Assembly: GCA_015228925.1 (NCBI GenBank)
Contig: JADGCQ010000015.1
Coordinates: 1-48,547 of the forward strand
DNA from: Magnetococcales bacterium
GTDB taxonomy: Bacteria > Pseudomonadota > Magnetococcia > Magnetococcales > UBA8363
DNA: 48,547 nucleotides
Reading direction: 5' to 3'
Made by a program: the position numbers and the translations under genes
Notes under the pieces: model-generated
The model's input: the letters and a program-made list of their open reading frames with translations, nothing else
Databases searched by the model: none
Told to the model about the DNA's origin: nothing
Shown here: piece by piece, positions 15,691-39,135 of the stretch
How the letters are laid out: each line of letters starts with the position of its first letter
Position numbering within the stretch: position 1 is the first letter of the stretch

Positions 15691-16683
15691 GTGGGAACAC
15701 CAAAAGATTTGAATAATCCCGGAGTGTATGCCGAAGCCCTTTATCAGGCGGCCAGAATGGGGGATGCCGAAGATTTGGCGCGGTGGTTGGCCGATGATCC
15801 AGAGGCTCACCAGGGGCCGTTCTGGAAATGGTTCCTCCATTTTGCCGAACGGCTTATGGATATGGCACCGGATCCAGAACGTGGGTTTGTCGTGCGTGAT
15901 CGGCGTACCGCCCAGCCTCCAAGAATTGGCCGTAACGATGTGTGTCCCTGTGGATCGGGCAAAAAATTCAAGCAGTGCCATTTGGGCCAGGAAAGCACTG
16001 TCTCCTGGAAACTGGGTTCGCCGACACCGGCGATTCGGGCTATGGCGACCTCCCGTTTGATCCACGAATGCTCCCTGGAGACCCTGGACCGGGTTCCCCG
16101 TGACAAAGCCAGTGCTATGGTCTTGACGGAAATGGCGGCTACGTACCACGGTCATGGCCAGATTGAAAAGGCCCTCGAACTCCTTTCCGGCGTATTGCGC
16201 GACGAACGTGATGATCCCTACCTCTTGTGGGATTATTGGATTGCGCGCTATGCCGAATGGTTGGTGGAAGCGGCCCGGGAAAAAGAGGGCGAACAATTCC
16301 TGCTGGATGAATATGACCATCCGCGCAAGGTCACCCAATGGCAGGTGGCCCAAAAACTGGCGGCGTTCTACATCGACCTGGGCGATACCGAAAACGCCGA
16401 TACCTGGGTGAACGTCGCCATGGAAGGCAATCCTGGTAATCCGTTCAACCATTACCTCAAAGGGATGTTGCTGCACTATGTCGAATCCTGGGATGCGGCG
16501 GTGGCATCCTATACCCAGGCCGAGCAGTTGATGGCCGATTTCCGAGATGAAGAAAAAATTTATATGAACCAACTGGTTTCCGAATCATTGGAGCGGGCAA
16601 GAAACCATCAACCCCTGGAGGATGAACCCGATGATGCCCCCGATCAGGATGGCGATGATCGGGGGCAGGATCAGACACCATGA
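15691..16683 (+). CDS. SEC-C motif and TPR-like protein
   Basis: GTG 15691 is preceded by AAGGAG about ten bases upstream, giving a 330-residue protein. The SEC-C zinc motif RNDVCPCGSGKKFKQCH lies near residues 78-95 with the C-x-C...C-H ligands, as at the tail of SecA and in many stand-alone proteins. From about 130 onward helical repeats resemble TPR units (AATYHGHGQIEKALELL, AAFYIDLGDTENADTW, LHYVESWDAAVASYTQ). The C-terminus is strongly acidic. Its stop overlaps the aspS start by four bases (ATGA), implying translational coupling. It may be an adaptor in protein handling or translation; the precise role is unknown. Confidence 0.85.
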   Translation: MGTPKDLNNPGVYAEALYQAARMGDAEDLARWLADDPEAHQGPFWKWFLHFAERLMDMAPDPERGFVVRDRRTAQPPRIGRNDVCPCGSGKKFKQCHLGQESTVSWKLGSPTPAIRAMATSRLIHECSLETLDRVPRDKASAMVLTEMAATYHGHGQIEKALELLSGVLRDERDDPYLLWDYWIARYAEWLVEAAREKEGEQFLLDEYDHPRKVTQWQVAQKLAAFYIDLGDTENADTWVNVAMEGNPGNPFNHYLKGMLLHYVESWDAAVASYTQAEQLMADFRDEEKIYMNQLVSESLERARNHQPLEDEPDDAPDQDGDDRGQDQTP

Positions 16684-18500
16684 ACAGAACTCATTATTGC
16701 AACGATGTCCGCGACCACCAGATTGGCCAGAGCGTGTGTCTTTCGGGTTGGGTTCACCGACGCCGTGATCATGGTGGGGTGATCTTTGTCGATTTGCGTG
16801 ATCGGACCGGGTTGGTTCAGATCGTTTTCAGCCCTGGGCATGAGGGGGAAGTTCACCGCCGTGCCCACGAACTTCGAAGTGAATATGTCATCGAGGTCCA
16901 TGGGATTGTCGCTCCGCGCCCCAAGGAGACGGAAAATCGCAATCTTCCCACCGGAATGATCGAGGTCAATGTGACACGGCTGGAGATTCTCAACACCTCC
17001 AAGCCGCTTCCGTTTCAATTGGATGATGAGGATGTCGGCGAAGGGGTGCGGCTCCAATATCGCTACCTTGATCTACGCACCCAAAAGATGCAAAAAAATC
17101 TTCAATTCCGCCATCGTGCCAACCAGTTGGTGCGCCGTATCCTGGATGAGGCGGGATTTTTGGAGATTGAAACCCCCATGTTGACTCGCAGTACCCCGGA
17201 GGGGGCGCGTGATTATCTGGTCCCCAGCCGTGTCAATCCGGGTCAGTTTTATGCTTTGCCGCAAAGCCCGCAGCTTTTCAAACAATTGCTGATGATTTCC
17301 GGGTATGACCGTTATTTCCAGATCGTCCGTTGTTTTCGGGATGAGGATTTGCGTGCCGACCGGCAGCCGGAGTTTACCCAACTGGATTTGGAAATGTCCT
17401 TCGTTGGACCGGAAGATATCATGGCTTTGACCGAAAAAGTGGTGGCAGGAATTTTCCACGGTGCCCTTGGCCGAGAGATACCGTTGCCGATTCCTCGGAT
17501 GACCTATGCCGAGGCGATGGACCGTTACGGTCTGGATGCCCCGGATGTCCGCATCCCGATGGAATTAAAAGAGATTACCGGCATCATGGCCCAGACGGGG
17601 TTCAAGGTGTTTGCCGACCAGGTTCGGTTGGATGACAAGGGGAGGTCTCGCGGGGTGATCAAGGTGTTGCGCGTCCCGGGGGGTGGGCAGCGTTTAAGCC
17701 GCAAGCAGATCGATGATTATACGGGATTTGTCTCTGTTTATGGGGCCAAGGGGTTGGCGTGGATCAAGGTGAATGGGCCTTGGCGTGAGGAGGGGTGGCA
17801 ATCTCCCATTGTCAAACATTTTTCCGATGCGGAAAAAGATGCCATCCAGGGGATTACCGAGGCCCAAGCGGGGGATTTATTATTTTTTGGTGCCGATACC
17901 GTCAAAATTGTCAACGAATCTCTTGGGCGGTTGCGGGTTCGGTTGGCCCGTGATCTGGATATGATCGAGGATAAACCGTTTTCGTTGGTGTGGGTCACCG
18001 ACTTTCCGCTATTGGATTGGGATGCGGAGGCAAAGCGTCCGGTTTCTGTCCATCACCCTTTTACGGCCCCATCGGTGGAAGATTTGGCGTTGTTGGAATC
18101 GGAGGATGTCTATGACCTCCTGAAGGTCCGTTCCAGGGCGTATGATCTGGTTTTGAATGGGATCGAGGTGGGTGGGGGATCGATCCGTATCCACGATCCG
18201 GCCATGCAAAAGCGGGTTTTGTCGCTTTTGAACATTGGTGCGGAGGAGGCGGATCGTAAGTTTGGTTTTCTATTGCAGGCGTTGGAGTATGGTGCCCCAC
18301 CGCATGGTGGTTTGGCCTTGGGGATGGATCGGTTGATGGCTTTGATGTTGGGATCGGAATCGATCCGTGATGTCATTGCCTTTCCGAAAACCCAAAAGGC
18401 GGGTTGTGCCTTGACTCAGGCCCCTTCCGATGTGGATGAACGTCAGTTACAGGAATTGCAATTGCGCCGGGTGGTTCGTCCGAAAGTGGAACCGACCTGA
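16680..18500 (+). CDS. aspS: Aspartyl-tRNA synthetase (possibly non-discriminating)
   Basis: This 606-residue class II synthetase has the bacterial architecture: OB-fold anticodon-binding domain (about 1-110), catalytic domain with motif 2 around FRDEDLRADRQPEFTQLD, a bacterial GAD insertion (about 290-420), and motif 3 HGGLALGMDRLMALMLG near the end. Residue 31 is His in RRRDHGGVIF; in the well-studied Pseudomonas enzyme a His here accompanies relaxed specificity that also charges tRNA-Asn, whereas E. coli has Leu. That hints at Asp-tRNA-Asn formation and a GatCAB route, but the amidotransferase is not in this window. It is coupled to the upstream SEC-C gene. Confidence 0.96.
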   Translation: MNRTHYCNDVRDHQIGQSVCLSGWVHRRRDHGGVIFVDLRDRTGLVQIVFSPGHEGEVHRRAHELRSEYVIEVHGIVAPRPKETENRNLPTGMIEVNVTRLEILNTSKPLPFQLDDEDVGEGVRLQYRYLDLRTQKMQKNLQFRHRANQLVRRILDEAGFLEIETPMLTRSTPEGARDYLVPSRVNPGQFYALPQSPQLFKQLLMISGYDRYFQIVRCFRDEDLRADRQPEFTQLDLEMSFVGPEDIMALTEKVVAGIFHGALGREIPLPIPRMTYAEAMDRYGLDAPDVRIPMELKEITGIMAQTGFKVFADQVRLDDKGRSRGVIKVLRVPGGGQRLSRKQIDDYTGFVSVYGAKGLAWIKVNGPWREEGWQSPIVKHFSDAEKDAIQGITEAQAGDLLFFGADTVKIVNESLGRLRVRLARDLDMIEDKPFSLVWVTDFPLLDWDAEAKRPVSVHHPFTAPSVEDLALLESEDVYDLLKVRSRAYDLVLNGIEVGGGSIRIHDPAMQKRVLSLLNIGAEEADRKFGFLLQALEYGAPPHGGLALGMDRLMALMLGSESIRDVIAFPKTQKAGCALTQAPSDVDERQLQELQLRRVVRPKVEPT

Positions 18501-18588: not shown

Positions 18589-19521
18589 TTATCCTTTGTC
18601 CGAGAAAACATCGTCCAGCGACTGGGCATCCACAAACCGAAGGCTCCATTTCTCCAGGGAGGATGGCTCGGCTTTGGCGATCTTTTCGCTGGCCCATTCG
18701 GGGACAGCACCAAAGCGGTACTGTAATTGGCGAGTCAGGAGCGCGGCTTCTCCTTCCTGTCGTCCTTCCTGTCGTCCTTCCCATTTACCGGCACCATAAG
18801 TAGAGAGTACAAAGCTTGCTTGGTCATGCAATTCGTCCTGATAGCGTTCATAGGCCCTGCGTTCTATCTCTGGCAATTGCAGGACATCCAGCTTTTCTTT
18901 GGCCTTTTTCAGTCCACGAGCCGTGAAATCATCACGGATATCGGAGTTTTTTAAAAAATAGACCCACTCGTCCAGGGTGTCGCGGGCGACATCATCAAAA
19001 TTTCTCACCTTGATCAAGTAATGTTCTGGGAAAATAGCCGCTACCGAAGGGCGTTGAAACAATGCCTTCTGCCCTTCGTCCAAAGCCAGTTCTTCTTGGG
19101 TGTGCAACCCCCGGAAAGAGGTATTGCCGACATAAATATAATCGCTGCCATGCCCCAGATCAAAATAGAGAATGCTGATGGTGATGACCTTGATGACACT
19201 GGCGTAAGGTTTGCCTTGGGCCATGTGTTCGGTGATGGTCTTGGCGGTGCTGAAAAGTAACCGCTGTAGATAGTCCCACTCCCGTTCATATTGCAATTCA
19301 ACGATGATAATCTCATCCCGGGTGTTTTTGATCTTGAGATCGACACGGTTGAATTTATCGCTGCGGGTTTCCTGATTGCTTTCGCTCTCCAAGATTTCGA
19401 CGATGCGCACATCTTCGCGCAGCAGTTCGGAGAGGAACCCTTCCAGGATTTCAAAATTGGCCTTGCTGCGCAGCAGACGTTTCAAGGCCCAGTCAAAGCT
19501 GATCAACTGCCGTTGTTTCAT
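18589..19521 (-). CDS. Rpn-family PD-(D/E)XK nuclease/putative transposase
   Basis: This 310-residue protein fits the Rpn/PDDEXK_2 family (recombination-promoting nucleases, formerly putative transposases). The nuclease core at the N-terminus shows the expected NRVDLKIKNTRDEIIIVELQ, with Asp and Glu-x-Gln in place of the classic ExK. A middle helical region ends in an EGRQEGRQEGEAALL low-complexity charged hinge. The C-terminal about 55 residues (LTRQLQYRFGAVPEW ... FSDK) match a DUF4351-like tail that recurs in two other loci in this window. The ATG at 19521 has GGAGAGA upstream. It is convergent with aspS and intact; a decayed copy lies at 26904-27450. Role: mobile-DNA-associated nuclease, not proven to transpose. 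Confidence 0.85.
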   Translation of the reverse strand: MKQRQLISFDWALKRLLRSKANFEILEGFLSELLREDVRIVEILESESNQETRSDKFNRVDLKIKNTRDEIIIVELQYEREWDYLQRLLFSTAKTITEHMAQGKPYASVIKVITISILYFDLGHGSDYIYVGNTSFRGLHTQEELALDEGQKALFQRPSVAAIFPEHYLIKVRNFDDVARDTLDEWVYFLKNSDIRDDFTARGLKKAKEKLDVLQLPEIERRAYERYQDELHDQASFVLSTYGAGKWEGRQEGRQEGEAALLTRQLQYRFGAVPEWASEKIAKAEPSSLEKWSLRFVDAQSLDDVFSDKG

Positions 19522-20320: not shown

Positions 20321-20390
20321 AAAATCTGGGGGACAGTATATCCATTTCCCTACTCTCTATGACCCCAGACCTTGTGACCCCTGACCTTGT
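20321..20390. repeat. REP-like repeat array 1
   Basis: This begins with AAAATCTGGGGGACAGTATA, continues through TCCATTTCCCTACT, then has GACCCCAGACCTTGTGACCC and a second GACCTTG unit. It borders the acetyltransferase gene and forms the 3' end of the clipped YhcG-like gene. The units match those in the arrays at 21044-21385 and 22337-22815. Confidence 0.75.
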
Positions 20391-21066
20391 AGTGGGCTTC
20401 AGCCGCGCCTTTCTCGGCGCAGAGGATTAGCCCCACGGGTGGATTCTCACTGGGTTTCATCCAGTGTTCACGGGCGAAATTCAGGTACAGGTGCATCTGC
20501 CCCGCGTCAGCGTAGCTGAATTTGCCAACCTTGAGGTCGATGACCAGCAGGCAACGCAACCGGCGATGGAAGAACAGCAGATCGACCCGGAACCAGTTAT
20601 CGTCGATGCGCAGTCGTCGCTGACGACCGACAAAGGCGAAATCATCGCCCAGTTCGAGGAGAAAATCAGCCAGGTGCTGGATCAGTGCATCTTCGAGATC
20701 GGAGTCGGAGTATTCGTCCTTGAGGTTGAGAAACTCCAGCACAAATGGGTCTTTGATGGTCTGCTCGGGGGTGAGCGTATCGTCTGGTTCGGCGAGTTCG
20801 GCCTTTTGCAACATCGCCGCCTTGTTGCGCGACAGCACCGTGCGTTCGTAGAACTGGCTGTTGATCTGGCGGTTGAGCTGACGCACCGACCAACCACATC
20901 TCAGGGCCTCGGTTGCGTAGAAACTGCGGGCCAGCTCATTTTTGACCGACAGCAGACGAACGTAGGCGGACCAGGGCAATGGAAAGGCTGCGGCAATGGC
21001 TGGCAAGTCTGTGGAAGTAATTGATAGTATTGGTAAATTTGCCTGAATGGAATCTGGGGACACCAT
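20350..21066 (-). pseudogene. YhcG-type PDDEXK nuclease, truncated at both ends by repeats
   Basis: The open frame encodes 238 residues and matches the YhcG/DUF1016 nuclease family, whose members are usually about 340-380 residues. The C-terminal PDDEXK core is present: RIDDNWFRVDLLFFHRRLRC, LLVIDLKVGKF and PVGLILCAEK. Most of the N-terminal DUF1016 domain is missing; only SVRQLNRQINSQFYERTVLS and nearby helices remain. The first codons (MVSPDS) are read from a repeat unit (ATGGTGTCCCCAGATTC), and the last residues (VRGHKVWGHRE) from another. The family tail after AEKGAAEAHY is lost. It was probably part of a defence or restriction-linked locus. Whether the fragment is still expressed is unknown. 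Confidence 0.75.
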
Positions 21067-21385
21067 ACCTATTTCCTTTATGAATCTGGGGACACCATAC
21101 CTATTTCCTTTATGGCTGTAAAATTAATCGGTATGGTGTCCCCAGATTTTGTGTCCCCAGATTTTCCAAAATCTGGGGACACCAAAATCTGGGGACAGTA
21201 TATCCATTTCCCTACTCCCTATGACCCCAGACCTTCGATTTTGATGTTTTAAATGTCGTAATGCAAGACCTGACCCCAGACCTTGTGACTGACTGACCCC
21301 AGACCTTGTGACCCCAGACACACACTGACCCCAGACACACGACCTGACCCCAGACACACCGGATTTGTATGGTGTCACCGGATTT
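21044..21385. repeat. REP-like repeat array 2
   Basis: This array of about 340 bases mixes two unit types. AATCTGGGGACACCATACC with CTATTTCC follows occurs twice in direct orientation and once inverted (21131-21149), so the centre can fold as a long hairpin. From 21230 the GACCCCAGACC/GACCTGACCCCAGA units recur at least six times, one of them preceded by AAATGTCGTAATGCAAGACC. Frames through the array are repeat-derived and not believable proteins. No transposase is nearby. Confidence 0.8.
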
Positions 21386-22260: not shown

Positions 22261-22336
22261 GGAAAAGGCAACTTCCAACTCTGGCGGGTCCGGCGGGGAA
22301 CTAAATTATTTCTCGAACAACCCGCTATAACCATTC

Positions 22337-22815
22337 ACAAAATCTGGGGACAGTATATCCATTTCCCTACTCCCTACTGCAATTTGGAACCTCTGTGACC
22401 CCAGACACGATTTTGATGTTTTAAATGTCGTAATGCAAGACCTGACCCCAGATAGTGTGTGTAAATGTCGTAATGCAAGACCTGACCCCAGATAGTGTGT
22501 GTAAATGTCGTAATGCAAGACCTGACCCCAGATAGTGTGCATGACCCCAGATAGTGTGCAGACCTTGCGTGACCCCAGACCTTCAGACCTTGATTTTGAT
22601 GTTTTAAATGTCGTAATGCAAGACCTGACCCCAGACCTTGTGACCCCAGACCTTGCGTAATGCAAGACCTGACCCCAGACCTTGTGACCCCAGACCTTGC
22701 ATGACCCCAGACCTATAATGCAAGACCTGACTCCAGATAGTGTACAAGACCTGACCCCAGATAGTGTGAGTGTGTGTGTGACCCCAGGTAGTGTGTGTGA
22801 CCCCAGATATGCAGA
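22337..22815. repeat. REP-like repeat array 3
   Basis: This is the largest array, about 480 bases. It starts with AAAATCTGGGGACAGTATAT, then has three near-identical direct copies of a 39-base unit (about 22425-22540) containing AAATGTCGTAATGCAAGACC and TGACCCCAGATAGTGTG, then a looser run of GACCCCAGACCTTG and GACCCCAGATA units with a TG-dinucleotide tract near 22770. It ends about 30 bases from the SIR2 stop codon. No credible gene lies in it. Confidence 0.85.
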
Positions 22816-22845: not shown

Positions 22846-25800
22846 TCAGATCCCTCGGCTCCGCGAATACTCTCGGAGTTGCAGGTAACGGGGATCTTGT
22901 GCAGACTGTGGCATGGTCTGCACAATCTCGTCCAAACATTGCCCCAACTCTTCGGGCACCCACCGTGGTTCGTCAATCACGACATTCAGCAGACGCAGAG
23001 CATCCGCCGGGAATTGGATACACAAACCAGATTCCTTCAGTGGACACACGACATCGTGACAATCTTCAATGGGTTGAAGCCAACCTTCTATCGCAGCCAA
23101 AGCATCCGGGAACTTAGAGCGGGCAGCTATGATCAGCTGGATTAATGATTTGGCGATTCGCGAAGTGGCAATGTCGCGGGACTTGGGCCAAACGTTCTGC
23201 CAGAACGGCAGGACACGGTTTCTCCAATAATCCTCGTGCTGATCGGCGGCTCCTGCAAGAGCCTGAACGAGTGCCTCTGCGGATTCCTCCAGCCCTTTTT
23301 GAGGTAGCGACCCAATGGCGGATCGGAACTCGTCCTCGGTGTAGCCTTCGGTCGGCTCCAGTGCCGCATAGGTCAAGAAGGCTGCGAACTGCTGGTGGTG
23401 TTCAACCAAGTCGATGTAGTGATTCGCGCTCTCCAGGAACTGCGGTTTGAGCGCAATCAACAAGGGCTGGTACAAGCGTGGCGACCACAGGAAACCTTCC
23501 CATACAGCTTTTGCTTCTCTTGGATTGTTCCAACTGAACAGGGGCAACAAGTATTGCTCGGCCCACGGACGGTCCACGCGGAAAATCGCGATCAATTGCG
23601 AACCGAGCAGTACCCTGCCGTGACGAAACCAGTCCACCTGCACATCGCACAGTTTTGTGAAAAAGGGCTTGATGTCGTCTGGAAGGTGATCGTTGTCGTT
23701 CGGATTCCGTTTGAACCACAGATTGATCATCGCTTGCATGACATGTCCGACCGGATGGTTGATGGCCTCGGAAACAGGTCGGTCAATCGTTTTGTCATTG
23801 CGTGTCATTTCGGAGCCTGCTTTGAACGGCAAACCTAGAACACGGCGGCATAGGTCAAGCATAATCTCCTCGTGCCGATTGATCGACTTTGAAACGGTTT
23901 CGATCCAACTCGTCACATCGTGAGCAATCTCCTGGATGACGGTGTCGGGCATGGTTTGCACGAGAGGTGCTGCGTACTGCCAGGATTGCAACACCATTCC
24001 TTCTTGGCTCCAGGACATTAGTGCCGTGCGCCATCGTCCGGCTGGCCATACGCCATCCCGTGATAGGTCGCATAGCGCGTACAAACTGTGAAAGAAGCGG
24101 GTGCGGCAGACATCGCGCCATGTGTCTTCGTAGAACGGTGACCCTTCAGGTGGCGGCTTTGTAAGCCATTGAACGAGTTCACTCCGCTTTCGAGGTGCGT
24201 TCTCGACAACTCTGAGATCATCGAAGCCCGGTTCGCCGGTAACACTCATCCAGTGGGAAAACTCGTCACGCTCATTATCTGCCAACTGCCATTGCGGGTA
24301 TGCCTTAGACAATGCTGCCAAACGCACCGCTGCGTCTTTTCCCAACGCGATTGGCGAGGCTTCCAACTTGGCCAGATGCAGCCAAACCTCACGATCCACC
24401 GTTTTTTTTAGCGAATCAGGTTCCAGTCCATCCACGAACATCTCCTGTGGAGGACCGGCCAAGATAGTGGACTCCAGACATTCCTGAATGGCCCCTGCCA
24501 ATTGGCATCCCTTCAGAACCAATAGTCTGAACACCTCTCGTCTCGTCTCCGGGAACCACAGCCACCAGGCACCATCAGCCCTCAGCCAATCCACCCACTG
24601 TTTGGGTGCAATGCAATCATCCTGGCTGGCAGCAAAAAGGGCTAGTCGTTTGAAAGTGGGATACGGCAGATCAAACCACGTCTGGGCAATCCGCGTAGCG
24701 CGAACGCTGTCATTGCTGCGAACCGCCAGCCACGCATCACGCAGCAATTCGACCAAGATTACCCAGTCGCTAAGGCCCCGGTTCTGTCGGTGCGGAGTGA
24801 TAGACGGAAGATCCCAGTGAGACCCATCACGGCGGTCGTCGGCCTCACCCAACTCGCGCAACAAATCCAGCGCATCACGCAGCAGTAGCTGAAAATCCTC
24901 CAATAGCTGCGGCAAGGCAGACTTCCAGGCAGACTTCCAGTACTCGTCAGCAAGGTCGTGCAGGCTCGAATATACATGATCGGCAGCCAGCACCAATTCA
25001 CAGTTCACCAACTGGTTGATGTGCATGGGTTGGTTCTTACTATTGTGTTCTCTATCCCAAAGAGACCGTTCTTTCAGCAACACCTTAGGCGTGAGTAGTT
25101 CGCGCAACTCCAGGCGTAACGTAGTGGTCAGTCCCTCCCGCGTCAACCGATTTCTCCAGCGATAGAGAAGAAGGTCATCGTAGCCCTGCGGTGATCTCAC
25201 CCGCCCACTCAGCAGCAGGCCCCAAAGGGTACGCATCAAGGGGCTGGGGATGGCCTTAGGTGCGTGTGAGCGGATTTCATCCAATTCGACAGTCTTGTTG
25301 TCGCGTTCCAGTGAGGCAAAGCGGTTCAGTTCGTCATCGATCAGCCACGACCATCGGTCGTGCAACTGGCCGCCACGTTGCGCAATCCAGATGACCAGCC
25401 TTGGATCATCCAAGTGGCGCACCAACCAGCGAGCCAGATGCTCCATTACTTTGTCCCACCGGCTGCCGGTGATGTTGCCGGAGGCCAGCAGCATCGGTGA
25501 TGAGCGGTCGTAGGGTGCTGGACGGCGAATCAAGCTGAAACGCAATTTAGCGTCCACGGCGTCGCGTGGGGTCACGCCAAAGCGGGCCAAATCGCTGTGT
25601 TGATAGCGTTCATCCGAAAACGCATCCAGCAGCCAGTCCAGCGACGGAACGGGGTTGAAGTAGGCAAAGCGTTGGGCCGGCAGTCCTGACTTGTCCGACA
25701 AGGCCCACAACATCCGACCAACGAAATCGTCTTGCTGCGTGCTTGCCGATGGCCGCGCCAGGGCGTAACTGACGACGATGTGCTCCTTACCCAGTACGCC

Positions 25801-26688
25801 GTCGTGGTAGGTTTCCGCCCAAGCGTGCAAAGTTTTATGCAGCGATGAATGGTCATGTCCGCCGACGGGCACTTCGTAGAGGATGGGCGTGACGCCCTTG
25901 GCTTCCCACTCGATGACCTTGCGGCGTTTTTGTTCCGGTTCGCAATCTCCCAATGCCCATGCCTGCGGCGTGACTTCGCCCAGCATCCGGTCGGCGGCCA
26001 GCGCGTCCATCATGTAGCGCAGCACCGGATCGTTGATACCATAACCCACGAAGCATACTACGTAATTGCGGAACAGTTCGCCCACGAAGCGGGCTGCCCA
26101 GCGTTCGGTGAGGTAAGCCAGACCGAAATCGCCGCTGGTGACAACCAAGCGGTTCAACGCGGTGTCGTCCGCCTTTTTAGGCAACAGTCCGTGCAGATAG
26201 ACCAGCCCGTTCCAGCGGCTGTTTTTCGGGATCGGCAACATCGGCGCGGCATACTCTTGGAACGCTTGGTCTGTGCGTTTGGCCGCCGTATGAAACACAC
26301 GGTCGAAGTTGGTGGTGACCAGCCGTAGCGTACCCTCACGGCTGTGCGCCAACCGCAGCAGTGCTGCATGCGTATCGGTGGCACCCTTGCGGCGCAACTT
26401 GGGGCTCAGTGCCTGCACCAGCGCACGGCGGACGGCAAGACGCTTCCCCGGCAGACGCCGCTCCAACAGGTCGAGCGTGGCTCCGAATTGATCTTGAGAA
26501 TAGGCAGCATCTTCTTCAGGGGTGCGGGTGGTGCCAACCCGACGGTAAATCGCATCCACCAACCCCTGGAACCCAGGCAAGCCAGCCGGAACAGAAATTC
26601 CTGCGCCACAGAAGAATACGACCCGCCCACTCTCATGCTCTCGCAAAAGCAACTCTGGAATATCTGGACCATGATTAAAGAACTTCAT
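22846..26688 (-). CDS. SIR2-domain antiphage-type protein, defence-associated sirtuin-like
   Basis: This 1280-residue protein has an N-terminal SIR2 domain: FFCGAGISVPAGLPGF (residues 25-40) binds NAD, TTNFDRVF (125-132) carries the conserved Asn and Asp, His166 in YLHGLLPKK is the probable catalytic His, and VGYGINDPVLRYMM (214-227) closes the fold. About 900 further residues are helical, Trp-rich and without a familiar enzyme motif, as in the long sirtuins DSR1/DSR2 and SIR2-DUF4020 proteins that deplete NAD+ when a phage is sensed. It is a single-gene unit with repeat arrays at both ends and no partner gene. Defence by NADase activity is inferred from family and context; the phage trigger is unknown. 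Confidence 0.85.
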   Translation of the reverse strand: MKFFNHGPDIPELLLREHESGRVVFFCGAGISVPAGLPGFQGLVDAIYRRVGTTRTPEEDAAYSQDQFGATLDLLERRLPGKRLAVRRALVQALSPKLRRKGATDTHAALLRLAHSREGTLRLVTTNFDRVFHTAAKRTDQAFQEYAAPMLPIPKNSRWNGLVYLHGLLPKKADDTALNRLVVTSGDFGLAYLTERWAARFVGELFRNYVVCFVGYGINDPVLRYMMDALAADRMLGEVTPQAWALGDCEPEQKRRKVIEWEAKGVTPILYEVPVGGHDHSSLHKTLHAWAETYHDGVLGKEHIVVSYALARPSASTQQDDFVGRMLWALSDKSGLPAQRFAYFNPVPSLDWLLDAFSDERYQHSDLARFGVTPRDAVDAKLRFSLIRRPAPYDRSSPMLLASGNITGSRWDKVMEHLARWLVRHLDDPRLVIWIAQRGGQLHDRWSWLIDDELNRFASLERDNKTVELDEIRSHAPKAIPSPLMRTLWGLLLSGRVRSPQGYDDLLLYRWRNRLTREGLTTTLRLELRELLTPKVLLKERSLWDREHNSKNQPMHINQLVNCELVLAADHVYSSLHDLADEYWKSAWKSALPQLLEDFQLLLRDALDLLRELGEADDRRDGSHWDLPSITPHRQNRGLSDWVILVELLRDAWLAVRSNDSVRATRIAQTWFDLPYPTFKRLALFAASQDDCIAPKQWVDWLRADGAWWLWFPETRREVFRLLVLKGCQLAGAIQECLESTILAGPPQEMFVDGLEPDSLKKTVDREVWLHLAKLEASPIALGKDAAVRLAALSKAYPQWQLADNERDEFSHWMSVTGEPGFDDLRVVENAPRKRSELVQWLTKPPPEGSPFYEDTWRDVCRTRFFHSLYALCDLSRDGVWPAGRWRTALMSWSQEGMVLQSWQYAAPLVQTMPDTVIQEIAHDVTSWIETVSKSINRHEEIMLDLCRRVLGLPFKAGSEMTRNDKTIDRPVSEAINHPVGHVMQAMINLWFKRNPNDNDHLPDDIKPFFTKLCDVQVDWFRHGRVLLGSQLIAIFRVDRPWAEQYLLPLFSWNNPREAKAVWEGFLWSPRLYQPLLIALKPQFLESANHYIDLVEHHQQFAAFLTYAALEPTEGYTEDEFRSAIGSLPQKGLEESAEALVQALAGAADQHEDYWRNRVLPFWQNVWPKSRDIATSRIAKSLIQLIIAARSKFPDALAAIEGWLQPIEDCHDVVCPLKESGLCIQFPADALRLLNVVIDEPRWVPEELGQCLDEIVQTMPQSAQDPRYLQLREYSRSRGI

Positions 26689-26712
26689 AATAACCTATAT
26701 CAATATTATTCA

Positions 26713-26790
26713 TGAAAGGGTCATGGGGTCAGAAAGGGTCATGGGGTCAAGAAAGGGTCATGGGGTCAGGTCTTGCATTGCGATATTTCC
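26713..26790. repeat. REP-like repeat array 4
   Basis: Three tandem copies of an 18-19 base unit, GAAAGGGTCATGGGGTCA, are followed by TGGGGTCAGGTCTTGCATTG and CGATATTTCC. Orientation is opposite to the arrays at 21-23 kb. It lies immediately upstream of the SIR2 start codon (26688), so it could influence that gene's promoter. Confidence 0.8.
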
Positions 26791-26903
26791 TTTTCAAAAT
26801 GCTTTACTGCCCGGCTGACCATAGCGTAATGGACGTCAAAAAAGTCGGCAATCAGACATGCATTTTTTGACCCCGGGCATGCATTTTTGGGTAGCAAAAA
26901 AAG

Positions 26904-27450
26904 TTACACTTTGTCCGAAAAAACACCGCCCAGTGACTGGGCATCCACAAATCGAAGGCTCCATTTTTCCAAGGAGGATGGCTCGGCTTCGGCGATCTTT
27001 TCGCTGGCCCATTCGGGGACAGCACCAAAGCGATGCTGTAATTGGCGAGTCAGGAGCGCGGCTTCTCCTTCCGGTCGTCCTTCCCATTTACCAGCACCAT
27101 AGGTGGAGAGTACAAAGCTTGCTTGGTCATGCAGTTCTTCCTGATAGTGTTCATATGCGTTCCATCTCTGGCAATTGCAGGACATCCGGCTTTTCTTTGG
27201 CCTTTTTCAGTCCACGAGCTGTAAAATCTAAACATAATCGCTGCCGTGCCCCAGATCAAAATAGAGAATGCTGATGATGATGACCTTGATGACACTGGCG
27301 TAAGGTTTGCCTTGGGTCATGTGTTCGGTGATGGTCTTGGCGGTGCTGAAAAGTAACCGCTGTAGATCATCCCCCTCCCGTTCATAGTGCAATTCATGAT
27401 AGCCTTTTTGCCATGAGAAACAAGTCGCAAGTCCGGGTTGAACACCTTCC
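26904..27450 (-). pseudogene. Decayed Rpn-family nuclease copy
   Basis: This is a broken relative of the gene at 18589-19521. The C-terminal part is preserved (HDQASFVLSTYGAGKWEG through FSDK). The core segment LQRLLFSTAKTITEHM to FDLGHGSDY is also present, but about 90 residues between them are deleted, with a shift of frame at the junction near 27228, and the first about 75 residues are gone. The upstream bases 27395-27450 match those upstream of the intact gene, so the ancestor was copied with its flank. It cannot make a working nuclease. Confidence 0.85.
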
Positions 27451-27485: not shown

Positions 27486-30400
27486 TCACGGAGTCGGGTG
27501 AGAAAAATGGGATCCATGGGGTACTTCCAGGGTTTCCTCGACCAGCGTCACCGCCTCCTTAAACCGGTATTTGCTCACCAAGCGGGTCACCTCCTCCAGG
27601 CGTGGACGGAGCGTGTCGGGCCATGTGTCGGGAGACTGCGTGGCAAGAATTTCACGACATTTCCGAGGATTGCGTTCCCGGAGAGGGGGGAGAAGCGTCT
27701 GCAAATGAGCGATGATCTCCTGAGTGGAAACATGGCGTATTGGCGATAAGATCACATCCTGCTCCCGTTCTTGAAGAACGACCAGACTATCCAGTCCCTG
27801 AAGTAATTTTTCGTGTATGCGTTCCAGAACCTGCAACGCTTCCAAGGATGCGGTGATATCCCCCTGGGCCATATAGGCTTCCAATTCTTGGGCAGCTTCA
27901 GCCAGGTTGGAGGCACCAATGGTTCCCGCCAACCCTTTGATGGTATGGGCCAACCTTTGGGCCGAAATCAGGTTATCCTCTTGGATCTGGGTGGCTATCA
28001 GGGTCGGGAGTTTTTCCTGATCGATCCTGAATTTCTTCAGAATGTTGACAAGAACATGTGGTTTGTTTGCACACTGACGGAGACCTCGAATAAGATCCAA
28101 ATCGGCGATGCCATGGCCTTCGATCCATTCCGGCATAGGCACCGATGACACATCCCAGGTATCAGGGCCAGGCTCATGGGGGAACTCTTTCCCGTCAGTG
28201 GGGGCGGTCTCCTGTTCCGTGAGCCATAATGCCAAACGTTGGTGCAGTTGGTAGGGATCGATCGGTTTGGGAATATGGTCGTTCATCCCCGCCTCAAGAC
28301 ACCTTTCCCGGTCGCCCTGCATCACATTGGCGGTCATGGCAATAATGGGCAGATGACGTAACGCAGACTCTTTACGGATTTCGCGCGTGGCCGCATAGCC
28401 ATCCATCTCCGGCATTTGAACATCCATGAGAATGGCATGGAAAGATCCCGTTTTTGCCTTTTCTATCCCGATGCGACCATTCTCGGCCACGGTCACAGAG
28501 ATACCCATCATGGCCAATAGCTCGCTGGCGACCTGCTGGTTGACCGCATTATCTTCAACCAACAAGATGCGTGATCCGCGAAAGGCGGCAAGTTCGGTCA
28601 GTTTAGGGCGTTGGCGCGGTGAAGATTCCAACATCCCCTTCCAGGATGTGATCCCGAACATCTCTTGGACGGCATCCATGAGGGAGGAGTTGGTGACCGG
28701 TTTGGCCAGGTAAGCATCGAAACATCCCTTGGATTGCCCGTTTCGGGATGATTTTTCCCACTCTTCGGTGCCTATCAACATGATCTTGGGGGGGGCGACC
28801 GTGACCACCGATTGAATGCGCCCGCAGGTTTCACGAGTATCCATATCCGGCAAATTTTCTTCTATCAGCACCAGATCGAATCCAGATCCTTGCCGCAGCC
28901 GTCGTTCAAGACATTCGATAGCCTCTGCGCCGCTGGCGGCGGTCTCGGTGGCAAAGGTCAGTCCGGTTGCAATCTCCCAGAGGACATCCCGCGCCGACTC
29001 ATTGGCATCGACCACCAGCAACGACAGTCCGTGCAGGCTGGATTGAGCTTCGGCGTGATCATCTCCCTGAAGACCCAGGACGATCGAAAAGTGGAAAGTG
29101 CTGCCCTGTCCTGGTTGACTTTCGACCCAAATGTCGCCGCCCATGAGTTCAGAAAGCCTTTGACTGATGGCCAACCCAAGACCCGTGCCACCATGCATGC
29201 GTGTCATCGAGGTGTCTGCTTGGTTGAAGGATTGAAACAGCCGTTCTTGCTGCGATGCCGTCATGCCGATTCCGGTATCTCGGATGGAAAACCTGAATAT
29301 GGCCCGATCCGGGGTGGCATCCACTTTCCAAACACCGACGACGACTTCCCCCGTTTGGGTAAACTTGACGGCGTTATTGGCCAAGTTCACGAGAATTTGC
29401 CTAAGCCTGAGGGGATCACCGATCACCGCATTCGGAACATCAGGCTTGGCACCTACCAGGAGATTCAGCCCTTTCTCGCGAGCTTTGAACGAGATCATAT
29501 TGGTCACCTCATCCAACACATCGCGAAGTTGGAAGGGGATCCACTCCATTTCCAGTTTTCCCGCCTCGATCTTCGAAAAATCAAGAATATCGTTCAGAAC
29601 GCCGAGCAGATTATTGGCGGCACCATGAATTTTACTGACATAATCGCGCTGTTTTTGACTCAGTTCGGTTTGCAGTGCCAAGTGGGTCATGCCGATGATA
29701 GCATTCATCGGTGTTCTGATTTCATGGCTCATATTGGCCAAAAATTCTGATTTGGCACGAGTGGCATCCTCTGCCGTTTGCCGGGCCGCGACCAGAGAAA
29801 GTTCCGCTTCTTTCCGTTCGATGATAATTGCCAGGGTTCCGCCGACCGACAATAATAATTCTCGCTCTTCGTCTTGGCTGATGTGACCGGCGGGAACATA
29901 GAGCGTCAGCACGCCGGCTGTCGCTGTACCGATGCGGATGGGGACACAATAATGGCCATGGTCGGTGATACCATCAAAACGGATATCGTGTCGTGCGTCC
30001 AGGTGGTTGACGAACAGAAACTTGCCGGAGATGGCCGTTTGGCCACATAGGCAACGTCCGGGTGGCAGGGTATGACAAGATTCAAGCAGCGAAGGATGCA
30101 AGCCGAATTGGGCACGCATCTGCAACCCGGTACTATCCTTATCCTTTAAAAAGATGGCTCCCCTTTTCTGTAGTTGTATAAACGAGATTTCCAGAATATG
30201 TTCCAGGGCCACGTTGAGCAATTGGTCCATGGAATATTCCTGAATGGGAATAGCCAGAAGGCTTTTGAGCAGCGTTTGGCTCTCAAAGGAAAATGAAAGT
30301 TTTTTTTCGGCCTGCTTGAGCCGGGTGATGTCGGTCTGGATGCTGATGAATTCCAAGGGTTTTCCATGTTCATCCAGAAAAGGGACCAGGGTGGCACTGA

Positions 30401-30728
30401 CCCAATACATCGATCCATCTTTGGCGCGATTGCACACTTCTCCGCGCCAAGTTTCCCCCCGAAGCATGGTATCCCAAAGGTGTGAAGCATCGGGAACCGA
30501 ATGTAATCCAGACATGGCAAGGGTATAGTGTTGTCCACACAGTTCCTCGGCGGAATACCCGGAAATTTGGCAAAACAAGTCGTTGACGTAGTGGATGATT
30601 CCCTGAGGATCCATGGCACTGATGATGGCGTGCCGATCCAGGGCATATTTTTGGAAATTGAGTTCCCGCAGCAATTTTTCGCGCATGATGTCGGTCGATG
30701 ATACGGTCGAACCAAGGGTCTTGATCAT
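27486..30728 (-). CDS. Hybrid histidine kinase PAS-GAF-HisKA-HATPase-REC*-REC-HPt
   Basis: This 1080-residue soluble kinase has a PAS/PAC sensor (about 25-140), a GAF domain (150-305), HisKA with His335 in [13 protein letters not shown], and an ATPase domain ([16 protein letters not shown]). The first receiver (about 567-690) is degenerate: the acidic pair is DA (574-575) and the phosphoacceptor position is Glu623 in [10 protein letters not shown]. The second receiver (720-840) is normal, with Asp769 in [13 protein letters not shown]. HPt carries His928 in [11 protein letters not shown]. The last about 80 residues match the tail of the 806-residue kinase. It is last in the FIST operon, 47 bases after the HD-GYP gene, and may relay phosphate to it. 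No membrane segment is present. Confidence 0.92.
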
Positions 30729-30775
30729 TTTGGGATACCGTATATTACGTAAGCCTTGCCTGTAAAAACATGTTG

Positions 30776-31873
30776 TTAGCGAACATCCAAGTTTTCTTCA
30801 GACTCGGGCGTTTCAGCCCACTTGTCCCGAATTTCCAGGATACTCTCCATAAGATTGATAAACACGGGTATGAGAACGGGATCAAAATGTTTGCCAGCTT
30901 CCGTTTTGAGCAATTCCACGGTACGTTCCACACTCCACGCCTGTTTGTAGGGGCGGTTGCTGGTCAGGGCGTCGAAAACGTCCGCAATGGCGACAATACG
31001 TCCTACCCGTGGAATCTCCTCACCCCGCAGGCGGTTGGGATAGCCGGTCCCATCCCATTTTTCATGATGCGTCATGGCCACGGTCCGTGCGTTCTGCAAC
31101 AGGGGGGTATCGTGCCAGCCGATGATACCACCGCCGATTTCTGGGTGACGGCGCATGATGGTCCACTCTTCTTCGTTTAACTGCATGGGCTTGAGGAGGA
31201 TCCGATCTGGAATCCCAATTTTGCCGATGTCATGCATGGGGGCGGCCTGGAGCAACAATTCGGCCTCTTCTTGTCCCATGCCAGCCGCCTGTGCCAGTAG
31301 GCGGGCGTAGTGGCTCATGCGAATGACATGCAGGCCGGTTTCATTATCCTTGAATTCCGCTGCTCGGCCTAAGCGGCGGATAATCTGTAGCCGGGTCCGT
31401 TCCAGTTCATCGTTTTTTTCCTGTAATTGGAGTGTCCGTTCCTGAACCTTTTGTTCCAAGATTTGGTTTTGAGTCGCCAGTTGTTTGCGGGCGTGTACCA
31501 ATTGTAGATGTGTGTTCACCCGCATCAGCACCACCGGAGGGCTGAATGGCTTGGTGATGTAGTCTACGGCGCCCACGGCAAACCCTCGGGTTTCGTCATC
31601 GGTCTCCTGTTTGGCGGTGATAAAAATCACGGGAATGTCGCGGGTTTCTGGAGATCGTTTGAGTTGTTCACACACCGCATAACCGTCGATGCCCGGCATC
31701 ATGATATCCAACAGGATCAGATCAGGATTGGTGTGGGTGACATCTTCCAAAAAGCTTTCACCATCCAATGCCACACTGACATCGTACTCTTCTCCCAACA
31801 ATTCCATGAGTACGTCTATGTTGGTATCCGTATCATCGACGATAAAAATTCGGAATCGTCCGTTATGGCTCAT
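30776..31873 (-). CDS. Response regulator with HD-GYP domain (c-di-GMP phosphodiesterase)
   Basis: This 365-residue RpfG-like protein should hydrolyse cyclic di-GMP. Start ATG 31873 lies two bases after the previous stop. The receiver (about 8-125) has the pair DD in IFIVDDTD, Asp56 in [10 protein letters not shown] and Lys in YITKPFS. A coiled-coil linker follows. The HD-GYP domain shows [13 protein letters not shown] (the HD pair), [14 protein letters not shown] (GYP), and [15 protein letters not shown]. All expected metal ligands appear to be present, so it should be active. It is third in an operon with FIST, kinase and hybrid kinase genes, which suggests that kinase activity sets c-di-GMP level. 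Confidence 0.94.
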
Positions 31874-31875
31874 GG

Positions 31876-34296
31876 TCAGGTTTCTTTCAGTCGTGTGAGT
31901 TCGATCCGTATTGCCTCCAGGACCACCATAGCGTCCTTGAGACGATATTTGTGGATCAGGGTCTTCAGATTGTCGAAGGGTGTCCGTATTTCGAGTGGCA
32001 AGGTGAGCTGGGTCAGTTGTTCCAAAATGGCCAAACTTTGGCGTGGCTGCCGTTCCAGGAGCGGTGCCTGAAGTTGCTCGAATTGGGAGATCAGATCTTC
32101 CAGATTGAGTATTTCGCCTGTAGGGGGCGTCGCAAGCTCTGCTCTGAACTGGGGTAGAGGCGCAGTCGGTGTGTTGACCTGATCGGACAGCGGATCCAGG
32201 GAAGATGGCAAGATGGTATGGTGGCTGTTTTCGTGATCTATGGTTTCTTCCATCTTTGGGTCGGGTCGTTCCGAAGACTGGGAGCCGAGGGTGCCGACAG
32301 GGATGGATCCATGGAGGGGGCATGGTTCCGGTGCGATTGTCGCGGCACGTTGGTGGTCGCAGGCCAGGGGGATGGTAAAACGGAACAAGCTGCCCACATC
32401 GGGGGTACTCTGGACGGTGATATCGCCACCCATGAGATTGACCAACCTTTTGCTGATGGCCAATCCCAGGCCGGTACCCCCAAAACGGCGTGTGGTGGAG
32501 GTATCGGCCTGGGTAAAGGCGGAGAACAGACTGGCGATTTGCGTTGGCGTTATGCCGATCCCGGTATCGGTGACGGAAAAGGTAAGCCGTATCGGGTCTG
32601 AGGTCATTTTGGACTCCTCTTTTTCGACCCGGAGGATCACTTTGCCGACTTCTGTGAATTTGACCGCATTACCGACCAAATTGAGAAGTACCTGATTGAG
32701 TCGTAGCGGATCGCCTTTCAGATGGGATGGAACCTCAGGATCTTTGATGATGACCAGTTCCAGTTGTTTTTCGTGTGCCCGAATCGATATCATGGCCGAG
32801 AGGGTGTGTAAAACCGCATCCAGGTCAAATGGAATCACCTCCATATCCAACCGTCCCGCCTCAATTTTGGAAAAATCAAGGATGTCGTTGACGATTCGCA
32901 GGAGAGATTGGCTGGAAGCGTGAATTTTGGCCAGGCAATCCATTTGCCGTGGGGATTCCGCTTTGGCCAGGGCCAAGTGACTCAACCCGATGATGGCGTT
33001 CATGGGGGTACGGATTTCGTGACTCATGTTGGCCAGGAAATCGCTTTTTGCCTGGTTGGCGGCTTCCGCCTGTTCCATGGCGGACTTTAATTCTTGTTCC
33101 ACACGTTTGCGCTCACTCACGTCGATATGGATACCTGTCATGCGGATAGGGTGACCTTCGGCATCACGTTCGGTCACTTTTCCGGTCGAGAAAATCCATT
33201 TCCACAGTTCCTGCCGGTGACGCATACGGAATTCCACCTGGTAGGTCGGAGTTTCGCCACGCATATGGATTTCGAGCCGTTTTTGCACCAATGCGACATC
33301 CTCAGGGTGGATCAACCCCAGCCATTCTTGCCCGTTTTCTTTGATTTCTCCCTTTTGGTAGCCCAACATATGCAGCCAATGTTCGCTGAAGTAGGCTTGG
33401 TCTGTCTGCGGGTTCCAATCCCACAACCCGGTATTGGAGGCATCCAGGGCGATTTGCAGCCTTTGTTCGCTCTCCCGCAGGGCATTTTCCATGACTCTCT
33501 GGGTGGTGATATCGGTGCGGATCGCAACAAATTGGAATGGTTGGCCATTGTCGCCAATGAATGGGACGATGGTTGCGGCAACCCAATAGAGGTTGCCGTT
33601 TTTTTTGCGGTTGCAGATTTCCCCGTGCCATACCTGACCTTGGGTAATCGTCTCCCACATGGTGCGGAAAAACTTTTTATCGTGCCAGCCGGAGTTGACA
33701 ATCTGGTGATCCTTTCCCAGGAGTTCTTCCCGTTGGTATCCGCTGACTAGGCAAAAATGGTCGTTGGCATAGGTAATTCGCCCCTGGGTGTCGGCAATGC
33801 TGACGATGGCATGTTGGTCCAGGGCGAATTTTTGCCGTTCCAAGTCGGCGAGGACGGTACTTAAGTTACGATGGATCGTTTCGTTTTCGTGTACCAGATC
33901 GATCAAGACACCGGTGAGTTGCTCCAGGCTTTCGACACCTTCACCCAGTGGTGGTCGGCCTGTGGAGGTCAGAAGATCATTGGATGTCTGGCGCAGGGCA
34001 TGAATGGCAATGGCCTGACGGTCGGCTTCTGCTCGCAGGCGACGATTGGCACTATCAAGTTCAGCGGAACTGATTTGTAGACTGCGGTTACGCAATTGCA
34101 GATCCCGTTCGCTTTGTTCGTAGGTCGCCTCCACGCGGTCGAAAAAGTCTTCCAGCCCCTCAGCCAGGGCAGAAACAGCCTTATCGCACGCCGTTCGTCG
34201 GATGATATCTCGCAGACCGATCATGGCCTGTTCAAACTCCCCAGGTTCCACAAACCCAAAGGCACGTCTGACTTGTCGTTTCAGCAGTCGGTTCAT
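31876..34296 (-). CDS. Sensor histidine kinase with two PAS domains
   Basis: ATG 34296 overlaps the FIST stop (ATGA), giving 806 residues. A coiled coil (about 45-110) is followed by PAS/PAC domains at about 150-275 and 280-405, then HisKA with His426 in [14 protein letters not shown], and an ATPase domain ([16 protein letters not shown]). Unlike the other two hybrid-type kinases here it has no receiver and no HPt; instead a linker of about 80 residues leads to a tail (about 720-806) that resembles the end of the 1080-residue kinase. There are no membrane helices. Its likely partners are the FIST protein as sensor upstream and the HD-GYP regulator downstream. Confidence 0.92.
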
Positions 34297-35444
34297 GGAA
34301 CAGATTTCTCGCCGATCCAGAGGATCGTCATGGTTTGGTTGTGCAGCTTGCATTCTCCGCTCGATGCTTGAGGGCTGATTTCTCCGTAGGAGTAGAAACC
34401 GGTCACCATGTTTTCTTTTCCCAATACGTCCAAAACGGCGTCTACCTCCTCATCAATGTTGTCGCCCATGACCAGTTTACGGCCTACACAGCTCACCAGG
34501 ATCGACAGACCTGTTTGTTCTCTTGTGATCCGTTCCAGTACGGCATGGGCGGCGGCCTCGGCCCCATCCACCAAACCGTCAATATTGGCGTGCATCAGAC
34601 GGAGATAGCCGTCGGGATTGATATCTCCCGCCAGGGTGAGACTGCCAACCTGGTCGTCAATACCCAGGATGGTACGGATCAATCCGGCATTGGATTGGTC
34701 GGAGTTGAGCATTTCGAACGGAAATAACAGACCAGAGGCAGGCAAATCTTTGGAATAGTCTCCCAGATAATTGCGGTAGATGGCGAGAGCTGGTCCGCCA
34801 TCCAATTCAAAGAGGATATTTCCCTGGCAGCGGGTCACCTTGCGGGCCGGTCCGAAAGGGATCCAACCGCCGAAGGAACCATAGCCGATATCGACGCCAT
34901 TGCCGTATAGTCCAAAAGCGACCAGCCCTCTGGGCAACACCCCTCCTGGAGTGACCGTCACGGTCTCCACGAAGGCACCGCTATCTCCAGCCAGCCCCCC
35001 GGAGATGGGAATATCTGCCCCAAGTTTTTCGACCATCCCGGCAATGATCTCAGAACCATTGATTTGAATGCCGGGACCGAAAACACAGACCCCCTTGAGA
35101 TCTTCTCCCTGAAGGATATGGCCGATCGCTCTACCCGCTTCCCGGCTCTCCTCCAAGTTTTGCACCTCGGTGCTGGCGACCCGGACGGTGATTTGTTCAA
35201 AGTGCAATCCGGTCAGTACCAGGGTATCGTCACTCACGCCGTCATTGGTAATTTCGCCGGCGGTGGAGCATCCCGCCAGCCATACTCCGGGAAGTTGATG
35301 GACCAGTTGTCGATAGATTTCCCCGTCGGCGAGCATGGATTTGGAGCCAAACACCAGGATAAGCTGGGGTTGGAGTTGAATCAACTTTGAGAGGTCTAAG
35401 GTTTTGTTGTCTTTTTTGGAAATTTTGATTTGATGAAGTTTCAT
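34293..35444 (-). CDS. FIST-domain sensor protein
   Basis: This 383-residue cytoplasmic protein has FIST_N (about 25-225) and FIST_C (230-365) domains. Recognisable pieces are [33 protein letters not shown] and FYSYGEI. FIST proteins are signal-input modules; a subgroup (NosP) binds haem and senses nitric oxide, and is typically encoded beside a histidine kinase that controls c-di-GMP. I start it at ATG 35444 because GGAGG lies nine bases upstream; a GTG six codons earlier overlaps that site. It is the first gene of the operon. Haem binding is inferred from context only; an amino-acid ligand is the other possibility. Confidence 0.9.
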
Positions 35445-35621
35445 TGTGATGGAATCCTCCACCTGTCAACGGGAATTGCGCATCGGAGATGAGAGGCACC
35501 CGCCCCTGGGCAATGACAGGGAATAAAATGATGGTCGAGAGAGATAAGTATAAATCAACATTCGTTTATTGTCAATCCGCGACTCCCATCCATCGGTTTT
35601 GACGCCGGGATGCCAACTGCC

Positions 35622-38911: not shown

Positions 38912-39135
38912 GGCTTCCTCCGCACAAGCAGACCATCCACCCAATCAATCGCCTGAATGGCGAAAAGAAAATCCAGCACCAAGATAAAACGCCAATAAAC
39001 GCTAACCTCTGGATTGCCACGCACCCGTTCCCACAATGCCGTGACCGTTTGCGGGGACTGCATGTGCCGCAGCAAAGTGGCCCCAGCACCCAGAAGAGAG
39101 TGTCGCAGGTCAACATGCTTGGTCGGGAGAATCAT
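38908..39135 (-). CDS. ABC-3C middle component 6
   Basis: This 75-residue protein, MILPTKHVDLRHSLLGAG then LLRHMQSPQTVTALWERV, and ending WVDGLLVRRKP, matches the pattern of ABC-three-component system middle component 6: a small winged-helix-like protein with an ILPTKH start and an AIDWVDGLL end. It starts in the ATGA overlap of the lost upstream gene (stop at 39132-39134) and ends in the ATGA overlap with the ATPase gene, so it was made in a translationally coupled series. It probably bridges the ATPase and the effector protein. Confidence 0.85.
   Translation of the reverse strand: MILPTKHVDLRHSLLGAGATLLRHMQSPQTVTALWERVRGNPEVSVYWRFILVLDFLFAIQAIDWVDGLLVRRKP

What the first reader, a model, noticed from the sequence alone, without database searches (positions are those of the whole stretch)
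22846..26790. Stand-alone 1280-residue SIR2 defence protein inside a repeat frame
All SIR2 catalytic motifs are visible, and the long helical C-terminus resembles that of NAD-depleting antiphage sirtuins. It has no partner gene and array 4 lies directly at its promoter side. The C-terminal part, the probable phage sensor, shows no motif I can name, so its trigger may be new.
Basis: partly seen in the sequence, partly recalled or inferred. Interest (0 to 1): 0.58.

Follow-up and report, generated by a model that had tools for sequence, protein, structure and literature searches.

The report
Ordinary DSR1 phage-defence sirtuin gene
This gene is a complete, ordinary member of DSR1, an already catalogued family of bacterial phage-defence proteins thought to act by destroying the cell's NAD+, and it happens to sit among unrelated transposase-linked DNA repeats.

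Summary
In detail: one intact 1280-codon ORF at 22846-26688 (-), with all SIR2 active-site residues, no partner gene, and a repeat array just upstream of its ATG. It is not a new sirtuin. The whole protein is an equivalog of Dsr1 (NCBIfam NF041818, 1999.7 bits, cut-off 1400; PADLOC Dsr1, 2249 bits over 1-1280). DSR1 is widespread: 391 relatives in one scan of genome contigs, 74 of 5426 E. coli genomes, and 6 of 48 genomes of the window's class over the cut-off. Asn127 and His166 are kept in 72 of 72 non-redundant homologues. The C-terminal 1000 residues are conserved across the family and predicted as an alpha-solenoid. Likely mechanism: the solenoid binds an unknown phage trigger and releases the SIR2 NADase. 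The "repeat frame" is a separate matter: two dispersed repeat families (48 and 22 sites in the genome), each found at one of the genome's two Y1 transposase genes. One loose end: array 4 begins where homology to a sister genome's dsr1 leader ends, and may have replaced part of the promoter.

The parts
22846..26688 (-). dsr1, 1280 aa, anti-phage defence-associated sirtuin Dsr1
   Evidence: NCBIfam NF041818 1999.7 bits over residues 1-1276; PADLOC Dsr1 2249.1 bits over 1-1280
25879..26688 (-). SIR2 NADase domain, about residues 1-270
   Evidence: Pfam SIR2_2 over 123-269; predicted model aligns to DSR2, ThsA and KomC SIR2 domains with Z 21-22, 3.1-3.3 A over 256-260 residues
26593..26607 (-). 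GAGIS motif, residues 28-32 (NAD binding)
   Evidence: G28, A29, G30, S32 in 72 of 72 homologues; position 31 I/V/A
26308..26310 (-). Asn127 codon, predicted catalytic (TTNFD)
   Evidence: invariant 72 of 72; corresponds by motif to N133 of DSR2 (passages of PMC10973363 and PMC11087589)
26191..26193 (-). His166 codon, predicted catalytic
   Evidence: invariant 72 of 72; corresponds by motif to H171 of DSR2
22849..25878 (-). C-terminal region, about residues 271-1280: predicted alpha-solenoid, probable sensor
   Evidence: AlphaFold2 model of 262-1280, mean pLDDT 86.0; nearest folds are HEAT/ARM proteins
26705..26732 (-). promoter-like site CTGACC-16-AATAAT: first hexamer inside array 4, second in the native leader; at chance level
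   Evidence: 1 found against 0.8 expected; second hexamer lies where the G041 dsr1 remnant also has a promoter-like second hexamer
26710..26778 (+). array 4: about three units ending in GGGGTCAGGTCTTGCAT; dispersed transposase-associated repeat, not part of DSR1
   Evidence: homology to G041 stops at 26714
22336..22815 (-). repeat array downstream of the dsr1 stop, same family (TGACCCCAGA units)
21050..21200 (.). second repeat family (GGAAATAGGTATGGTGTCCCC)
   Evidence: 22 sites in the genome, up to 2 mismatches, against 1 for the control

Best explanation
The gene encodes an intact DSR1. It is a single-protein phage-defence system: the C-terminal alpha-solenoid holds the N-terminal SIR2 domain inactive and binds some phage component made during infection. 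Binding opens the SIR2 pocket, and the enzyme hydrolyses NAD+ (to ADP-ribose and nicotinamide), starving phage replication. Shown here: family membership, intact active site, purifying selection, a predicted solenoid, a stand-alone layout and a horizontal history. Inferred from DSR2 and other antiphage sirtuins: the trigger-release mechanism and NAD+ hydrolysis. The flanking repeats belong to Y1-transposase elements that are scattered through this genome and landed beside the gene.
For: Full-length equivalog hit above the curated cut-off and PADLOC Dsr1. Active-site residues 72 of 72. dN/dS 0.16-0.28 against four homologues over the whole gene, 0.16-0.32 over the C-terminal part. SIR2 fold Z 21-22 to DSR2, ThsA and KomC. 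Foldseek's best matches to the 1-1200 model are DSR2 chains, E 5e-9. No conserved partner: 8 of 80 loci. Defence-type company: E. coli dsr1 lies between an integrase and prophage genes, a plasmid copy beside restriction genes; in the sister genome G042 the DNA next to the same histidine kinase carries BrxHI and part of BrxD. DSR2 mechanism: passages of PMC10973363. Horizontal history: six proteins of the class need three changes on the tree.
Against: No activity was or could be measured. The trigger is unknown. A review passage reports that DSR1, unlike DSR2, stops phage without killing the cell (PMC10952713), so plain lethal NAD+ depletion may not be the whole story. The C-terminal solenoid searched alone is nearest to eukaryotic HEAT/ARM proteins, not to DSR2, so the gating geometry may differ from DSR2. 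pTM of both models is low (0.52, 0.55), so the arrangement of domains is uncertain. The native promoter may have been disrupted by array 4. Not all settings are defence-like: the Pantoea plasmid copy lies among metabolic and transport genes.
Confidence: 0.88

Rival explanations
1. A new sirtuin defence family whose C-terminal sensor is unlike any known.
For: Pfam names only the SIR2_2 domain and nothing in the 1000-residue C-terminus.
Against: NCBIfam and PADLOC match the whole length, C-terminus included, far above the cut-off; 391 relatives in genome contigs.
Confidence: 0.02
2. A SIR2 enzyme with a cellular, non-defence role, or one that makes a signal instead of depleting NAD+.
For: SIR2 domains also occur in deacetylases (one search lists several at weak scores), and no activity has been tested here.
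Against: Patchy presence (6 of 48 class genomes over the cut-off; 74 of 5426 E. coli genomes), prophage and plasmid settings and horizontal transfer fit defence; the closest folds are antiphage NADases.
Confidence: 0.06
3. The gene is intact but silent, because array 4 has replaced its promoter.
For: Homology to the G041 dsr1 leader stops at 26714, within the start of array 4; the promoter-like site that remains is no better than chance.
Against: dN/dS well below 1 and an unbroken frame show no decay, although a recent loss would not yet show; a hybrid -35/-10 is present.
Confidence: 0.2
4. The repeats and dsr1 form one functional unit, for example a transposon that carries defence cargo.
For: Arrays of one family lie on both sides of the gene.
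Against: 48 sites on 16 contigs, beside genes of many kinds; no more than one copy of any tested motif beside dsr1 in 93 of 94 other loci.
Confidence: 0.03

Closest known systems
DSR1 (Dsr1; NCBIfam NF041818, PADLOC Dsr1)
   Same: Full-length match 1-1280, same start and end, same active site, single gene
   Different: Nothing found in the protein; the only local peculiarity is a repeat array in place of upstream DNA
DSR2 (cryo-EM entries such as 8wyb, 8z18)
   Same: SIR2 domain fold (Z 21.9, 3.1 A over 257 residues against 8wyc_D), N and H active-site pair, helical C-terminus, single gene
   Different: No sequence similarity in the C-terminus: the profile of 10 DSR1s matches DSR2 over positions 17-51 only, E 0.5; DSR1 is about 275 residues longer
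ThsA of Thoeris
   Same: SIR2 domain fold (Z 22.1, 3.3 A over 259 residues against 8btp_A)
   Different: PADLOC ThsA match E 1.4e-5, confined to residues 17-231; no SLOG domain found by Pfam
Y1 transposase (RAYT) and REP repeats (for the flanking arrays only)
   Same: Each of the genome's two Y1_Tnp genes has copies of one window repeat family beside it
   Different: Window units are not clearly palindromic, and the pair at the C90 gene is direct, not inverted

Membership tests
DSR1 | score above the curated whole-protein cut-off of NF041818 (1400 bits) | tested here: met
   1999.7 bits, model 1-1263 of 1263
DSR1 | PADLOC Dsr1 over the full length | tested here: met
   2249.1 bits, 1-1280, model 1-1275 of 1275
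DSR1 | SIR2 active site (GAGxS, TTNxD, His) | tested here: met
   72 of 72 for G28, A29, G30, S32, T126, N127, D129, H166
DSR1 | single gene without a conserved partner | tested here: met
   8 of 80 loci with any close same-strand downstream ORF
DSR1 | phage protection and NADase activity | not testable with these tools
   needs experiment
DSR2 | full-length sequence similarity to DSR2 | tested here: not met
   profile of 10 DSR1s matches DSR2 chains over positions 17-51 only, E 0.53 or more; no family named Dsr2 among the 9 PADLOC hits
DSR2 | SIR2 domain fold with the N/H pair | tested here: met
SIR2-DUF4020 | DUF4020 domain | tested here: not met
   Pfam scan at E up to 1 finds SIR2_2 only
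Thoeris ThsA | C-terminal SLOG domain and a ThsB partner | tested here: not met
   no SLOG domain; no partner gene
RAYT/REP repeats (the flanking arrays) | repeat copies at a Y1_Tnp gene | tested here: met
RAYT/REP repeats (the flanking arrays) | palindromic unit | tested here: inconclusive
   DNA fold z-scores of four window units -1.16 to 0.59, of two C90 units -1.87 and -0.24
RAYT/REP repeats (the flanking arrays) | two copies in inverted orientation around the gene | tested here: inconclusive
   direct at C90 (both -), inverted at C151 (16384 - and 17799 +); C90 begins at a contig end

The most novel reading that the evidence does not exclude
A repeat array of a Y1-transposase element has replaced the native upstream DNA of a defence gene up to about 25 bp from its start codon and now supplies the -35 half (TGACC, part of every unit) of a hybrid promoter, so that a mobile repeat sets the expression of DSR1.
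Probability: 0.15. Interest if true: 0.3.

Novelty: new member of a known kind. Interest (0 to 1): 0.12.

Why it matters
It is mainly a calibration: a reader without tools saw a defence sirtuin correctly but could not see that the whole chain is a catalogued family. The useful by-products are that DSR1 is present, patchy and horizontally acquired in this class (Magnetococcales, inferred from matching contig lengths), that one genus member keeps only a broken N-terminal remnant and another carries BREX genes at the same flank, and that a repeat array can sit in place of a defence gene's upstream region. The DSR1 trigger is still open as far as I could find.

Tried and rejected
Rejected: (1) new sirtuin family, refuted. 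(2) SIR2-DUF4020 and DSR2, no sequence support outside SIR2. (3) Repeats as part of the defence unit, rejected because they are genome-wide and not a feature of other dsr1 loci. (4) DSR1 in isolated phages: no match in 50,697 phage records, although 21 loci in IMG/VR contigs and an E. coli prophage setting show it in prophages.

Led nowhere: the first genome-contig scan with the single protein found no relative, and the alignment query then gave 391. The C-terminal model searched alone did not list DSR2 among the rows shown; this is no proof that the folds differ. A paper search for RAYTs together with Magnetococcales found nothing, and one for sirtuins, magnetotactic bacteria and phage defence listed no paper on all three among the 8 shown.

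Dropped rows: 7 of 101 loci L071-L171 without a long unbroken frame; 9 further loci not covering both ends, leaving 85, then 13 near-copies, leaving 72. Four rows under 30% identity were left out of the reference lists for folding (68 of 72 kept), and 49 relatives of those 68 were used in each folding alignment. A1 holds L005 with a disturbed N-terminus at a contig end and L006 with unknown residues; they were kept.

Full report
What is there. The window holds one unbroken frame at 22846-26688 on the minus strand, ATG to stop, 1280 residues. The finding's right edge, 26790, adds a repeat array upstream of the start codon.

What it is. The whole protein matches NCBIfam's Dsr1 equivalog (NF041818) with 1999.7 bits against a cut-off of 1400, over residues 1-1276, and PADLOC's Dsr1 with 2249 bits over 1-1280. 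Pfam names only SIR2_2, which explains why the C-terminus looked nameless. Relatives are plentiful: 391 confirmed in one scan of genome contigs, of which the best 80 were kept; 21 loci in viral contigs; none in 50,697 phage records; 62 plasmid records, 11 with at least 80% of the query in one place. A homologue from a viral contig, used as DNA query, matches 74 of 5426 complete E. coli genomes, 71 over at least 80% of it. In the window's own class 14 of 48 genomes have some match and 6 of 48 exceed the cut-off.

Active site and selection. In 72 non-redundant homologues G28, A29, G30, S32, T126, N127, D129, H166, G215 and D220 never vary. The matching residues of DSR2, N133 and H171, are needed for NAD+ cleavage (passages of PMC10973363 and PMC11087589). 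dN/dS against four homologues is 0.16-0.28 for the whole gene, 0.14-0.18 for the SIR2 part and 0.16-0.32 for the rest: purifying selection throughout.

Structure. Models of residues 1-1200 and 262-1280 reach mean pLDDT 84 and 86 but pTM of only 0.52 and 0.55, so local folds are trustworthy and the overall arrangement is not. The SIR2 part aligns with DSR2, ThsA and KomC at Z 21-22, 3.1-3.3 A over 256-260 residues. The best Foldseek matches of the long model are DSR2 chains, E 5e-9, with very large rmsd, so the SIR2 part probably carries the match. The C-terminal region alone is nearly all helix and nearest to HEAT/ARM solenoids such as CAND1, importins and the PP2A scaffold, Z up to 12.8, a level that helical repeats can reach without kinship. 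A solenoid is a sensible phage-protein sensor, but that is inference.

How it probably works. By analogy with DSR2, where the C-terminal domain binds the phage tail tube protein and releases the SIR2 NADase (passages of PMC10973363), the DSR1 solenoid should sense a phage product and unleash NAD+ hydrolysis. A review passage says that DSR1, unlike DSR2, inhibits phage without killing the cell (PMC10952713). I found no reported DSR1 trigger in searches; the original paper is not held.

Partners and setting. Of 80 loci with enough downstream DNA, 8 have a close same-strand ORF, of varied length: DSR1 has no conserved partner. Settings elsewhere are often defence-like: between an integrase and prophage genes in E. 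coli, beside restriction genes on an E. coli plasmid; the Pantoea plasmid copy, by contrast, lies among metabolic and transport genes. On a tree of 81 proteins the window pairs with another Magnetococcales protein (SH-aLRT 98), but the six class members need three changes, and the closest proteins by path come from Thermodesulfobacteriota, Nitrospirota and Planctomycetota: the gene moves horizontally. In the sister genome G042 (93% identical DNA over 27510-35619) homology stops at the end of the histidine kinase beside dsr1, and BrxHI plus part of BrxD follow. Its other flank lies on a different contig ending at 18678, so a shared insertion site is likely but not shown. Genome G041 keeps only an N-terminal dsr1 remnant (166-codon frame, 87.5% identical DNA over 26327-26714), running into sequence that looks by eye like the end of a type I restriction specificity gene (the last name is recalled, not searched).

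The repeats. GGGGTCAGGTCTTGCAT has 48 sites on 16 contigs, up to one mismatch, 0 for the control; GGAAATRNGTATGGTGTCCC has 22, up to two mismatches, 1 for the control. The genome has two Y1_Tnp genes. One (C90, frame 21-560) has copies of the first repeat at 33-49 and 590-606. The other (C151, profile match 17401-17721) has copies of the second at 16384-16403 and 17799-17818; the latter lies in the open frame but upstream of the start codon that I would pick by eye. RAYT genes flanked by REPs are established (abstract and passages of PMC2817692), but the units here are not clearly palindromic and the C90 pair is direct, so I call them Y1-transposase-associated repeats rather than REPs. They lie beside genes of many kinds and are not a feature of other dsr1 loci.

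A small loose end. The G041 leader and the window's agree up to 26714, within the first bases of array 4. The only promoter-like site upstream takes its first hexamer from the array and its second from the old leader; about one such site is expected by chance. The array may have rewired or silenced the gene.

Verdict. A genuine, intact, ordinary DSR1: new member of a known kind, low interest.

Noticed in passing
window 20353-21066 (-): YhcG/DUF1016-type PD-(D/E)XK nuclease gene, lacking about 80 residues of the profile's N-terminal part, inside the repeat field left of dsr1.
   Followed up: partly
window 37169-38944 (-): DUF2326 protein matching PADLOC candidate PDC-M68B over its full length (652.9 bits) and, weakly, an ABC three-component domain: another possible defence gene in the window.
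   Followed up: no
window 18589-19521, 26903-26993 and 35853-36698: Copies or fragments of PD-(D/E)XK/DUF4351 (Rpn-like) genes; a 91-bp piece right of dsr1 resembles the end of the gene at 35853.
   Followed up: partly
L062:9832-12662: In sister genome G042, BrxHI and a partial BrxD next to the histidine kinase that borders dsr1 here.
   Followed up: partly
L068:764-1264: In same-genus genome G041, a dsr1 remnant of about 120 codons followed by unrelated sequence.
   Followed up: partly
L028 (G000:C133:27000-39000): A dense repeat field outside the window: 24 GGGGTCA sites within about 5 kb.
   Followed up: no
G000, many contigs: 123 matches to the histidine kinase at 27489-30728, and 112-135 in each of 7 same-genus genomes: a very large histidine kinase set.
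   Followed up: no
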